DNA from: an uncultured Planctomycetota bacterium
GTDB taxonomy: Bacteria > Planctomycetota > Phycisphaerae > SM23-33
NCBI GenBank assembly: GCA_903892515.1
Contig: CAITIS010000012.1
Location: 1 to 47,374 of the forward strand
Direction of reading: 5' to 3'
Length of the DNA: 47,374 nucleotides
Program-made: the position numbers and the translations under genes
The notes under the pieces: model-generated
Databases searched by the model: none
What the model was told of the DNA's origin: nothing
What the model saw: the letters and a program-made list of their open reading frames with translations, nothing else
In this document: positions 25,527 through 38,040 of the stretch, one piece after another
Layout of the letters: each line of letters opens with the position of its first letter
Position numbering within the stretch: the first letter of the stretch is position 1

Positions 25527-25564
25527 TCGGGCCGGAGGCGCCTCGTCCGTAGTGGCGCGTTCAT

Positions 25565-25723
25565 GGGTGCCATGGCCTGACTTGTCTGAGCCGCAGGCGA
25601 AGGCAAGGCTGGCCATGCCGAACCGCGAGCGGGGAACTGGCTTCCTCATGTAAGTCGTGTGGCCTTGGCCACGCCCCGCATAGGTAGAGCCGTAAGACGG
25701 CACGGCTCAACCTATGGCACCCA
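25565..25723 (+). repeat. Repeat family 5, 159-bp copy A
   Basis: The ends are GGGTGCCAT and ATGGCACCC. The final 46 bp (25678-25723) form the hairpin GCATAGGTAGAGCCG...CGGCTCAACCTATG. Copy B follows 199 bp later in direct orientation, with roughly 17 differences over 159 bp by eye. Confidence 0.85.
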
Positions 25724-25763
25724 ACCGGCGTCGTGGCGAGCTTCGTGTTTGGCGTTTTCTGAT

Positions 25764-25922
25764 GGGTGCCATGGCCTGACTTGTCTGAGCCGCGGGCGAA
25801 GACAAGGCTGGCCATGCCGACCTACCAGCAGGGAACTGGCTCCCTCACGTAAGTCGTGTGGTTCCGGCTGTGCCCCGCATAGGTAGAGCCGTAAGACGGC
25901 ACGGCTCAACCTATGGCACCCA
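25764..25922 (+). repeat. Repeat family 5, 159-bp copy B
   Basis: Same length and ends as copy A. The terminal 46-bp hairpin module (25877-25922) is identical to that of copy A, while the middle has diverged. Isolated copies of just this module occur at 26256-26301 and 37762-37805. Confidence 0.85.
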
Positions 25923-26002
25923 ACGGGCGCGGCTTGGCCTGTGGCACGCGCCCCGCACTATTATCTGCGTCATCTGCGGATGCTGTCGCGCTGTCAGTGC
26001 AT

Positions 26003-26038: not shown

Positions 26039-27238
26039 ATGGAGCATGTGTGGCATTTTGTGGATCGTTCCTGCCGGCCGGACGCCGTGGCCGAAGCCCA
26101 GGCGCTGGCTGAGAGCGGCCGGCTTGTCTGGGTCGGCACGCAGCCTGAACGTCATTCCACTTCGCAACAATCCCCGTGGCTGGTCATGAAGAATATTGAC
26201 CTCGCTCGGCTGTGCGCCGCGGCTCCCGAGGCGGCTTTGCCTGTGGTGATGCCGCGCATAGGTAGAGCCGCAAGAAGGCGCGGCTCAACCTATGGCACCC
26301 ATGCCCATCCCGTGCTGCAATGCTGGTCGGTCAAGCTGGCGTTGGCCGTGGCAGAGTCGGCCAAGCGTGCGCTGGCGCAGAACTATTTCATCACTGTGCT
26401 GCGACTGACGAGCCCCCTGGACGCGTCGGAGGCCACTTGCCTTGGGGAATTGAGCCGCGAGACGCGTTTGCTGGTGGTGGCCGACAGTGAGTCGCTGCGT
26501 GCGCAGGCTCGTAGCGCCTGCCCGCCCTCGTTCAGTTCGGCCGGGGGCGCACTCACGATAGTAACGGTGATGCAGATGATGTGCATTCCGCCCATCGGCG
26601 CCTCCGGCGTCCATCTCGCACGGCGAGTCCAGTTGCGGAAGCAGTGCGGCCTGGCTGCTGGCGACATCGTGCTGGCGGTCCCGCCGGCGGTGACCGCGAC
26701 CTCGGGGCACTACTTCGCCTTCTGGGCGACGGACATTTTGCATGTGGCAGAGTTTCCCGTGAAACTGGTCCTTCCCGCCGATCCGCTGGCGGCCAAGTCG
26801 AGCGGCCCGTACCGCGAGCTGGTCCGCTTTGCCTCCCAGTGCGGTTCGGGCGACTGCCTCATGCCGGCGGAGCTGTCGGGAGCTGAAGTGGCGGCCATCG
26901 GCGACGTGCTGCTGCTCGGCGACGAGCAGGAACTCTCGGCCTTCCAGGCGGCGCAGGCTTTGTCGGTGGGTAAGCCCATCGTGGCCACCGACACGCCGTC
27001 GGCCCGGGCCTTGCTGGGCGATGCGGCGCTGTTCGTGCCGGGCCGATCCCCGCGGGCTCTGGCCCAGGCGCTGCTGCGGCTGATCGAGCATCCCGAAGCG
27101 GCGGCCAGTTTGACGGAAAAGGCTCGGCTTGGCGGCCAGCAGTTCGAGGCGGCGGGCGTCCGGGAACAATGGACGCAGCTCTATGGCGGGCTGTCGCCGT
27201 CTTCTCACATCGAGGCCAGCGTTGCATCCGGACGCTAA
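26039..27238 (+). CDS. GT4-like glycosyltransferase with an in-frame palindromic repeat
   Basis: 399 residues, cytoplasmic. I start at ATG 26039 because TATCAT lies 7 nt upstream and no ribosome site supports earlier starts. The C-terminal half has the GT-B/GT4 donor-site layout: LLLGDEQELSAFQAAQALSVGKPIVATDTPSARALLGDAALFV (about 285-335) followed by helices typical of the end of the family. The N-terminal acceptor half is diverged and lacks a clear GGPxxV-type loop. Residues 73-88 (RIGRAARRRGSTYGTH) are encoded by a 46-bp repeat also found in intergenic DNA, so they are almost certainly an inserted peptide. It overlaps the next gene by 17 nt, so the block is probably one operon. Confidence 0.72.
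   Translation: MEHVWHFVDRSCRPDAVAEAQALAESGRLVWVGTQPERHSTSQQSPWLVMKNIDLARLCAAAPEAALPVVMPRIGRAARRRGSTYGTHAHPVLQCWSVKLALAVAESAKRALAQNYFITVLRLTSPLDASEATCLGELSRETRLLVVADSESLRAQARSACPPSFSSAGGALTIVTVMQMMCIPPIGASGVHLARRVQLRKQCGLAAGDIVLAVPPAVTATSGHYFAFWATDILHVAEFPVKLVLPADPLAAKSSGPYRELVRFASQCGSGDCLMPAELSGAEVAAIGDVLLLGDEQELSAFQAAQALSVGKPIVATDTPSARALLGDAALFVPGRSPRALAQALLRLIEHPEAAASLTEKARLGGQQFEAAGVREQWTQLYGGLSPSSHIEASVASGR
26256..26301 (+). repeat. Repeat family 5 hairpin module inside a coding sequence
   Basis: GCATAGGTAGAGCCGCAAGAAGGCGCGGCTCAACCTATGGCACCCA (split here: starts GCATAGGTAGAGCCG, ends CTCAACCTATGGCACCCA) differs from the intergenic module at a few loop positions only. The reading frame of the glycosyltransferase runs straight through it. 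Arms and loop are conserved as in the other three copies. Confidence 0.85.
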
Positions 27239-28874
27239 AGAGCCACTGGCCGGGGCGGCGCCCAAGGCGAAGATTCTCGCCCCCCAGCCATTGCTGGAGG
27301 CCGCTGGCGAATCTGCGATTCATGTTCCCGATCCGGCCGCGCGCGACCGTTTCGCCGCCGTGGTGCGGGATCGCCTGGAATGGTCGCTCATCAAACGCAA
27401 CGCCTCCCGCAGCGTGTACCGGGCGGTCGATTCGCGCGGCCCGCTGTACCTCAAGCACTTTCACAGCCAGTCGCTGGGCCATCGGCTGGGCGAGTGGCTG
27501 GGGCGGATGGACGCGCGGATGGAGTACGAGTGCATCGCTCGGCTGCGTGCTGCCGGCGTGAGCGTGCCGACGCCGCTGGCGGCCTGTTGGTCGGCGGGCT
27601 CGCACTGGCTCATCACCGAGGGTGTGGAACCCGCCCAGAGCGGCGATTTATGGCACGCCGAGCAGGCCAAGGCGGGCAACTGGCGGGCGATTCGCCAGGC
27701 CACGCTGGCGCTGGCGGACCTGGTGGCGCGGATGCACCAGGCCGGCGTAACGCATCCCGACTTGCACCTGGGCAACGTGCTGGTGCGGACGGATGGCGAG
27801 CGGCCTGAGCTGGTGCTGATCGATCTGCATCGCATGGGCCGGCACCGTCGATTGAGCTTGCGGAACCGGGCGGCCAACCTGGCGATCCTGCTTGGGAATC
27901 GGTTTGCCTGGACCACCGCCGCCGAGCGGCTGCGATTCCTGCGGCGGTACATGGAGCACGCGGGCGGGCCGATGTCGGTCGGGCTCTGGCTGGACTACAT
28001 CGAGCCGGCGGCGTTTCGTCTCAGGCGGCGATACCTGAGCCAGTGCAATCGACGCATTCTTCGCAACAACGGCTATTTCGCACGAATGAGAATCGCCGGC
28101 TATCGCGTTCACTCCCTGCTGCGAACGAAATGCCGCGTGCCGTCGTCACTGGCATGCACGCGCGAAACCACGGCTGCGGAGTGGCAGGCGGTGTTGCGCG
28201 AGCCCGATGCATTGCAGGACGGGCGCAGGCTGCGCATTGCCGATAGCAATCTGAATGTGTGTATCTGCCGGCGCGAATACACCTGCTGCTGGCCGATGCG
28301 TTCGGCCGCGCTGCGGGCATTTGTCATGGGCCACCGGCTGATGTACTGCGGTTTTTTCACAGCCGTGCCGCTGGCGGTGCTCGAAAAACGCCGACGAGGC
28401 CGAGTCGAGACGATCCTCATCACAGAACGCCAGACGGGCAGGCCGCTGGGCGAGTCTCTGCGTCAATGCCGCCGGAGGGGCGTATCAAGTGCTGCGGCCG
28501 AGTTGCAGTATCCGGGCCGCCCGCTGGCGTGGCAACTTGGCCGATGGCTGCGCCGGTTGCAGGAGGAAGGTTTTGTTCTGGAGGGCCTGAACTGCGAGAA
28601 TGTGCTGGTGTGCCGCGACGGGCAGACTGGTCAGGTCCAAGACCACCGGCGACAGTTCATCCTGAGCGGGCTGGAAGCGCTGTGTGGCCAGTCAAAGTGG
28701 CGCATCGGCCGGCCAAGCTTGCAGCGGCGTTTCGGCGTGCTGCAAGGGCTGGTGGCATCGCTGCGAGCCAGAGGCGCCATTAGCCGGGCCGACGAGTTGC
28801 GAATGCTGCTGGGCTGGCTGTCCGAAATGACCGACCACAAACCGTATTGGCGGCTGATGCAGGAGACGACTTAA
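27222..28874 (+). CDS. Tandem LPS-kinase-type (WaaP/InaA-like) kinase-pseudokinase fusion
   Basis: About 550 residues. I take TTG at 27222 as start because GAGG sits 6 nt upstream; an ATG at 27183 is also in frame. The first half has the LPS kinase pattern: RNASRSVYRAV nucleotide-loop region, YLKHFHS with the ATP lysine, the catalytic loop HPDLHLGN (H178, D180, N185) and metal-binding LIDLHR (D201). The second half (about 300-540) repeats the fold order, but its loop reads EGLNCENVLV with no catalytic aspartate, so it looks like a pseudokinase. WaaP-type enzymes phosphorylate heptose or Kdo of the lipopolysaccharide core. Neighbours are sugar transferases, which supports an envelope role. Confidence 0.72.
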   Translation: MHPDAKEPLAGAAPKAKILAPQPLLEAAGESAIHVPDPAARDRFAAVVRDRLEWSLIKRNASRSVYRAVDSRGPLYLKHFHSQSLGHRLGEWLGRMDARMEYECIARLRAAGVSVPTPLAACWSAGSHWLITEGVEPAQSGDLWHAEQAKAGNWRAIRQATLALADLVARMHQAGVTHPDLHLGNVLVRTDGERPELVLIDLHRMGRHRRLSLRNRAANLAILLGNRFAWTTAAERLRFLRRYMEHAGGPMSVGLWLDYIEPAAFRLRRRYLSQCNRRILRNNGYFARMRIAGYRVHSLLRTKCRVPSSLACTRETTAAEWQAVLREPDALQDGRRLRIADSNLNVCICRREYTCCWPMRSAALRAFVMGHRLMYCGFFTAVPLAVLEKRRRGRVETILITERQTGRPLGESLRQCRRRGVSSAAAELQYPGRPLAWQLGRWLRRLQEEGFVLEGLNCENVLVCRDGQTGQVQDHRRQFILSGLEALCGQSKWRIGRPSLQRRFGVLQGLVASLRARGAISRADELRMLLGWLSEMTDHKPYWRLMQETT

Positions 28875-37570: not shown

Positions 37571-37700
37571 GAGCGTGCCGAAACGTTCCCAATCGTTCCA
37601 AATGGTTCCGAATGGTTCCGTTTGGTTCCGTTTGGTTCCGTTTCGTTCCGTTTCGTTCCGGTTGGTTCCAGTCGGTTCCGCTTCGCGCCGTCTCGTGCCG
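37571..37700. repeat. Decanucleotide tandem array, 13 units
   Basis: Thirteen consecutive 10-bp units of consensus TTTGGTTCCG. The six central units (37601-37660) differ only at the first three bases and the fourth, and units decay toward both ends. The period is not a multiple of three. Confidence 0.9.
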
Positions 37701-37761: not shown

Positions 37762-37805
37762 GCATAGGTAGAGCCGAAGACGGCCGGCTCAACCTATGGC
37801 ACCCA
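37762..37805 (+). repeat. Repeat family 5 hairpin module, isolated copy
   Basis: GCATAGGTAGAGCCG and CGGCTCAACCTATGGCACCCA with a shortened loop (44 bp in total against 46). Only this module of the 159-bp family is present. Confidence 0.8.
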
Positions 37806-37843
37806 TTTCACGGTTTTCCGGCCCCCGCTTCCCGACTCGCGGT

Positions 37844-37959
37844 GGGTGGCATGGTCACGCTGTTCGCGTGACCATGTTTGACCGTTGAGTGGCGAGAAGG
37901 TCTTGCCAATGAGAAGGTCTTAACATGGTCACCCCAAAAGCAGGGTGACCATGCCACCC
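37844..37959. repeat. Repeat family 4, full-length copy e
   Basis: 116 bp, nearly identical to the copy at 15971-16086, with all four arms. It is followed 4 bp later by the heptamer array, as is the other full copy. Confidence 0.85.
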
Positions 37960-37963
37960 ACGC

Positions 37964-38040
37964 GATTCCCGATTCCCGATTCCCGAATCCCGATTCCCGA
38001 ATCCCGATTCCCGAATCCCGAATCCCGATTCCCGATTCCC
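37964..38040. repeat. Heptamer array (GAWTCCC) x 11
   Basis: Exactly 77 bp, eleven uninterrupted 7-bp units: GATTCCC or GAATCCC. It ends 7 bp before the L,D-transpeptidase stop codon. Confidence 0.95.

What the first reader, a model, noticed from the sequence alone, without database searches (positions are those of the whole stretch)
26256..26301. A mobile-looking palindrome sits in frame inside a glycosyltransferase gene
Seen: a 46-bp hairpin module found three more times in this window in non-coding DNA (25678-25723, 25877-25922, 37762-37805) also lies inside the GT4-like gene, where it encodes residues 73-88 (RIGRAARRRGSTYGTH). The frame is not broken. Known: Rickettsia palindromic elements (RPEs) insert in frame into genes and add tolerated surface peptides; comparable cases outside Rickettsiales and Wolbachia are rare. 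Inference: this is an RPE-like event in a planctomycete, with the donor family lying 0.3 kb upstream of the target gene.
Basis: partly seen in the sequence, partly recalled or inferred. Interest (0 to 1): 0.78.

Follow-up and report, generated by a model that had tools for sequence, protein, structure and literature searches.

The report
Mobile palindrome inside a glycosyltransferase gene
A short palindromic DNA repeat, found 146 times in this bacterium's genome, also sits in frame inside a sugar-transferase gene and lengthens the protein; it was likely copied there by the RAYT-type transposase whose gene the same repeat flanks elsewhere in the genome, a known kind of event that here involves repeats with an apparently new recognition tag.

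Summary
Confirmed: 26257-26300 is one of 146 exact-pattern copies in this genome (reversed control 0) and is read in frame in a GT4-type gene. The element-derived stretch is longer than reported: 26229-26300, 72 bp, residues 64-88. In 13 of 13 readable syntenic orthologs the surrounding spacer is 36-42 residues; here it is 59. A second copy lies in frame, antisense, in an ImuA-like gene; these are the two confirmed cases among 118 copies examined.

The element is best read as a REP, not a Rickettsia RPE. Inverted copies flank a RAYT gene (NCBIfam REP_Tyr_transpos, above cut-off) and the hairpin has a 5' foot, GGGTGC, in place of the canonical GT[AG]G. Of 50 RAYT loci sampled from this phylum, 44 have a shared inverted segment; in 27 of the 44 a G[GT]GTG[CG]C foot adjoins its best hairpin (reversed control 0). 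I found no description of GTGC-footed REPs in the papers read (figures and supplements unseen).

In-frame intragenic REPs are published for many species, so the insertion is not new in kind. The neighbouring copies are not the best donors: identical hairpins lie on other contigs. That the RAYT moved the element is inferred.

The parts
26039..27238 (+). GT4-type glycosyltransferase gene, 399 aa, that carries the element in frame
   Evidence: (PF13692 29.8 bits, PF00534 27.4 bits, both over cut-off)
26229..26300 (+). element-derived stretch (72 bp, residues 64-88): 3' arm of the left hairpin, spacer and right hairpin
   Evidence: profile match 58.8 bits; flank test
26257..26300 (+). right hairpin with tail GGCACCC (foot GGGTGC on the other strand); one of 146 copies
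25679..25722 (+). intergenic copy of the right hairpin
25878..25921 (+). intergenic copy of the right hairpin, in a 168-bp direct duplication (25563-25730 and 25762-25929, 90% alike)
37763..37804 (+). shorter fourth copy of the right hairpin
25566..25621 (+). weak match to the left hairpin of the compound, starting with the GGTGCC tag
   Evidence: 13.4 bits, E 0.002
25764..25823 (+). weak match to the left hairpin of the compound, starting with GGGTGCC
   Evidence: 13.2 bits, E 0.0023
27228..28874 (+). Kdo/WaaP-type kinase gene next to the glycosyltransferase; the neighbourhood is conserved in relatives
   Evidence: PF06293 81.7 bits; homolog beside 21 of 29 glycosyltransferase loci

Best explanation
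A 72-bp piece of a 146-copy palindromic repeat lies in frame inside the glycosyltransferase gene, and it was likely placed there as a REP element mobilised by the RAYT transposase whose gene the same repeat flanks on another contig. Shown: the copies, the hairpin with its GGGTGC foot, the RAYT gene with inverted copies on both sides, the open frame, a spacer longer than in readable orthologs, and a second in-frame copy in an ImuA-like gene. Inferred: that this RAYT cuts at the GTGC foot and moved a single-stranded REP or REP dimer into the gene; that the insertion survived because the hairpin has one open frame per strand, the added length kept the frame, and the site is a length-variable stretch between the second beta strand and the QCWS motif; and that the left part of the compound element was lost or mutated. 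No function of the added peptide is claimed.
For: 146 copies, reversed control 0; profile match 26229-26300 with flank test; spacer 59 residues against 36-42 in 13 of 13 readable syntenic orthologs, 22 in P0003; conserved kinase neighbour in 21 of 29 loci; RAYT on C102 with four tags on one side and one inverted on the other, NF047646 93.5 bits against a cut-off of 80, match to TnpArep 4er8 at E 1.7e-4; second in-frame copy in L162, loop 55 residues against 11 in the closest homolog; one open frame per strand in 115 of 117 copies; tag GGGTGCC in 115 of 117; 27 of 44 RAYT loci with a G[GT]GTG[CG]C foot at the best hairpin, control 0.
Against: No empty site in a close relative is available: the element is absent from 34 other family genomes, so target and boundaries are unknown. 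The spacer is indel-prone (P0003 has 22). The left 39 bp of a full compound cannot be recognised. The mobilising step is by analogy; no assay. One copy also lies about 1.5 kb to one side of another Y1 gene on C21, and the C155 RAYT locus was not scanned for the element. 7 of the 44 RAYT loci have no tag in the shared segment and 6 of 50 have no such segment.
Confidence: 0.82

Rival explanations
1. It is a Rickettsia-type palindromic element (RPE), a selfish palindrome without a transposase of its own that spreads into genes.
For: Palindrome, dispersed copies, in-frame residence in two different genes.
Against: A RAYT gene is flanked by inverted copies; a foot plus hairpin anatomy is shared with other RAYT loci; 2 of 118 examined copies are confirmed intragenic, so it is mainly extragenic. 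No RPE sequence was compared.
Confidence: 0.05
2. It is a MITE of a conventional (DDE-type) transposon, with GGGTGCCATAGG/CCTATGGCACCC as terminal inverted repeats.
For: Compound copies are bounded by long inverted ends.
Against: 31 of 56 collected copies lack the left end searched for; the flanks of 18 compounds show no consistent target duplication by eye; the element flanks an HUH-type gene. DDE genes were not searched for.
Confidence: 0.05
3. The insertion is functional: the added basic peptide was retained because it changes the enzyme, not merely tolerated.
For: The gene is intact and in a conserved neighbourhood; AlphaFold2 models residues 63-85 as one helix at moderate confidence.
Against: No homolog carries it; the spacer varies from 22 to 42 residues in others; in the ImuA-like protein the corresponding stretch is predicted disordered.
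Confidence: 0.06
4. The gene is decaying and the open frame is accidental.
For: Two segments are absent from close homologs; upstream coding score is modest, -1.0.
Against: 399 codons without a stop, both flanks score best in this frame of six, matching N- and C-terminal ends with P0003, GT-B fold.
Confidence: 0.05

Closest known systems
GTAG-tagged REPs and RAYT REPtrons (PMC2817692, PMC3733652, PMC6006769; passages or sections read)
   Same: High-copy hairpin with a 5' foot, dimers, mainly extragenic, RAYT gene flanked by inverted copies, some copies in frame in genes
   Different: Foot adjoining the stem is GTGC (GTGG in some relatives) instead of GT[AG]G; sequence confined to this genome among those searched
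Class 3 TnpAY1 systems of Planctomycetes and Acidobacteria (PMC6006769)
   Same: HUH tyrosine transposase gene flanked by hairpins, partly in the same phylum as named there
   Different: There the foot is CnGA and the Y motif YV[VI][AENY]EQ; here GTGC and YIHRNP
TIRtrons/TIRYTs (PMC3733652)
   Same: Tyrosine transposase gene with repeat ends other than GTAG, some self-complementary and multicopy
   Different: Their shared motif is GGGGWSAS; the tags here are GGGTGCC or GGGTGGC
Rickettsia palindromic elements, RPE (as cited in PMC3733652)
   Same: Palindrome read in frame within protein genes
   Different: Different lineage and, here, a RAYT gene flanked by the element; mainly outside genes

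Membership tests
REP/RAYT system (wide sense) | Short hairpin in high copy, dispersed | tested here: met
   146 copies, control 0; fold
REP/RAYT system (wide sense) | Flanks, in inverted orientation, a REP-associated tyrosine transposase gene | tested here: met
REP/RAYT system (wide sense) | Tetranucleotide foot 5' of the hairpin | tested here: met
   GGGTGC in 115 of 117 copies; found without presupposing it in L170 and other loci
REP/RAYT system (wide sense) | RAYT binds and cleaves the foot | not testable with these tools
   needs biochemistry
REP/RAYT system (wide sense) | Mainly extragenic | tested here: met
   2 of 118 examined copies confirmed in genes; about 82% of the window is long ORF; 28 of 146 copies not examined
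GTAG super-family of REPs | Unpaired GTAG (GT[AG]G) at one end | tested here: not met
   the foot is GTGC; the GTAG letters lie within the stem
Rickettsia RPE | Sequence similarity to an RPE family | not tested
   no RPE sequence was compared
Rickettsia RPE | Palindromic element in frame in protein genes | tested here: met
   two genes
TIRtron | GGGGWSAS motif at the repeat end | tested here: not met
   tags GGGTGCC/GGGTGGC held by eye against the consensus

The most novel reading that the evidence does not exclude
A phylum-wide class of RAYT-REP systems uses GTGC (or GTGG) as its guide foot instead of GTAG, and its hairpins, which keep one open frame on each strand, repeatedly donate new in-frame segments to proteins such as this glycosyltransferase and an ImuA-like repair protein.
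Probability: 0.45. Interest if true: 0.66.

Novelty: new variant of a known kind. Interest (0 to 1): 0.52.

Why it matters
It gives a countable REP family with a probable cognate RAYT, two in-frame gene captures in different proteins and orientations, and a foot whose last base differs from the known guide. That makes two questions testable: which RAYT residues read the guide, and whether intragenic REPs add tolerated or useful protein segments. For annotation it explains extra segments in two proteins as repeat-derived.

Tried and rejected
Chance similarity: rejected (0 expected, reversed control 0). Same element in relatives: 0 of 34 other family genomes by pattern; a 111-nt consensus gave two 22-nt partial hits in 59 relatives. 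The only named-genome match, L105 (where records very near the window's genome may be left out), looks by eye like a chance match with no extended palindrome.

The 37-residue difference to P0003 (59 against 22) equals the modal 111-bp compound and was first taken as a full-length insertion. I dropped this because 13 other orthologs have 36-42 residues there, so P0003 itself is short, and because by inspection the left end of a 111-bp compound puts a TAG in the frame used. 12 of 25 compounds have no frame open throughout and 13 have at least one.

Census: 118 distinct copies of 146 were examined; 73 open configurations with at least 75 nt of open frame on either side were scored and 16 read. 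Besides the glycosyltransferase and the ImuA-like gene, L152, L158 (two), L141, L139, L111, L014 and L150 were judged antisense or spurious by eye, L108, L129, L142 and L026 short or low-scoring, and L155 and L136 judged to start after the element (L155 is PF02522, L136 has no Pfam hit). Apart from the Pfam scan of those two, these were not tested by homology, so 2 of 118 is a confirmed minimum. The coding test passes 95% of 580 random positions in 29 window ORFs at -3.5, but those ORFs were largely also its training set.

RAYT residues that track the foot base C or G: no clear single residue (35 labelled proteins; relatedness not corrected). Genome-wide tag counts are uneven: 554 against 82 reversed in this genome, but many relatives are at or below the control. 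In one search, 27 of 44 loci have the tag at the best hairpin's foot, 10 elsewhere in the shared segment (no control made for those), 7 not at all; 6 of 50 have no shared segment.

Literature: searches (two returned none). Read: PMC3733652 abstract, passages and sections 5, 14, 15, 16; PMC6006769 passages and section 14; PMC2817692 passages. The other papers were seen as listings. Figures and supplements were not seen; PMC3733652 lists REP families in R. baltica, so a GTGC-footed family may already be drawn there.

Full report
What is there. The window holds four copies of a palindromic module. The one at 26257-26300 is inside the glycosyltransferase ORF read from 26039, in frame, as residues 73-88. 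Shuffled sequence gives none. The window is contig C12 of a 4.89-Mb, 159-contig genome, in which the pattern GGTAGAGCN{6,24}GCTCAACCTATGG occurs 146 times with no reversed-control match.

Anatomy. Of 56 copies collected, 25 are compounds with a recognisable left end: left part, spacer and right hairpin, bounded by GGGTGCCATAGG and CCTATGGCACCC; 111 bp is the commonest length, 9 of 25. The right hairpin folds as a 14-bp stem with one A.A mismatch, and a compound folds into one large structure, -42.1 kcal/mol, z -8.5. Read on the other strand the hairpin has the 5' foot GGGTGC; GGGTGCC is present in 115 of 117 copies. The GTAG letters of the module lie within the stem. In 115 of 117 copies exactly one frame per strand is open.

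The gene copy. A profile from 18 compounds matches 26229-26300, covering the 3' arm of the left hairpin, the spacer and the right hairpin. The 40 nt before the hairpin fit the best compound better than any of 4000 random window 40-mers or 1031 same-gene 40-mers; by mean score one of each does as well or better. The identical 35-mer occurs at C77, C84 and in L023, while the two upstream neighbours differ at three positions, so the donor was probably not next door (inference).

Is it an insertion in a live gene? The closest homolog, P0003, starts and ends alike and lacks the stretch. A Kdo-kinase homolog lies beside the glycosyltransferase match in 21 of 29 relative loci. Of 20 syntenic loci tried, 19 ORFs were extracted and 13 have a readable N-terminal half; in all 13 the distance between the second strand and the [QH]xW[SG] motif is 36-42 residues, against 59 here, an excess of 17-23 that is close to the 24 codons of the matched stretch. 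P0003 has 22, so the spacer is indel-prone and exact boundaries remain uncertain. The AlphaFold2 model (20 sequences, mean pLDDT 83.9) is a GT-B fold, best PDB match HepE 4xsu; residues 37-60 are below 50 and residues 63-85, most of the insert, are modelled as a helix at moderate confidence.

A second case. Among 118 copies examined, one other is confirmed in frame: an ImuA-like gene, L162:1792-2763 (NCBIfam ImuA 53.6 bits, below its cut-off of 150), carries the element antisense from residue 68. The loop is 55 residues against 11 in the closest homolog P0008; other homologs have loops of other lengths, some long, so this loop is variable too. AlphaFold2 leaves residues 68-94 below pLDDT 50. 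Part of the extra loop looks, by eye, like another repeat. About 82% of the window is long ORF, so copies avoid genes or are purged from them.

The likely motor. Of 14 Y1_Tnp matches in this genome, one, on C102, is flanked on both sides by the element within 1.5 kb: four tags on one side and one inverted on the other. A single copy lies about 1.5 kb to one side of another Y1 match on C21. The C102 product passes the REP-associated tyrosine transposase model, 93.5 bits against 80, and matches TnpArep 4er8 at E 1.7e-4. That it mobilises the element is inferred from REPtron precedent (PMC2817692, PMC3733652, PMC6006769).

A variant foot. In 18 RAYT loci of this genome's class, its own C102 locus included, tags GGGTG[CG]C[AG] number 82 against 8 for the reversed motif, and 48 against 0 when a hairpin of at least 8 bp must follow; 13 loci have tags on both sides (control 1). 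In 29 glycosyltransferase loci the numbers are 14 against 13, and 1 against 0. Without presupposing the tag, 44 of 50 RAYT loci (those 18, 3 more of this genome, 29 from a phylum-wide search of 294 genomes) have a shared inverted segment; 27 of the 44 have G[GT]GTG[CG]C at the foot of its best hairpin, reversed control 0, and 10 more have it elsewhere in the segment. The stems differ between loci while the foot recurs. PMC6006769 describes canonical feet as GT[AG]G and CnGA feet for its class 3; PMC3733652 describes degeneracy at positions 2-3 of GTAG, and GTGG. The GTGC foot is a variant that I did not find in print within the searches listed and without figures or supplements.

Verdict. The best account is an in-frame REP insertion, a known phenomenon, by a GTGC-footed REP/RAYT system that appears to be a new variant of a known kind.

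Noticed in passing
window 37843-37960: Hairpin-forming repeats with a GGGTGGC tag (GGGTGGCATGGTCACGC...), probably another REP family with a GTGG foot.
   Followed up: no
L036, L040, L044: Three further RAYT loci of this genome (C94, C109, C159) are flanked on both sides by GGGTG[CG]C-tagged repeats with other stems, so several REP families seem to coexist.
   Followed up: partly
L012, L026, L028, 3' of the right hairpin: Short tandem repeats of the tail (CTCAACCTATGGCACCCA-like) follow several copies.
   Followed up: no
window, glycosyltransferase residues about 170-183: A second 14-residue segment is absent from the three homologs aligned; it is not element-like in the profile scan.
   Followed up: no
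window 37600-37680 and 37960-38040: Simple tandem arrays (GTTCCGTTTG-like and ATTCCCGA-like) near the fourth copy.
   Followed up: no
genome G225: This distant relative has ten RAYT matches, nine of them of similar length and 35-36% identity to the query, which may indicate RAYT genes that multiply themselves.
   Followed up: no
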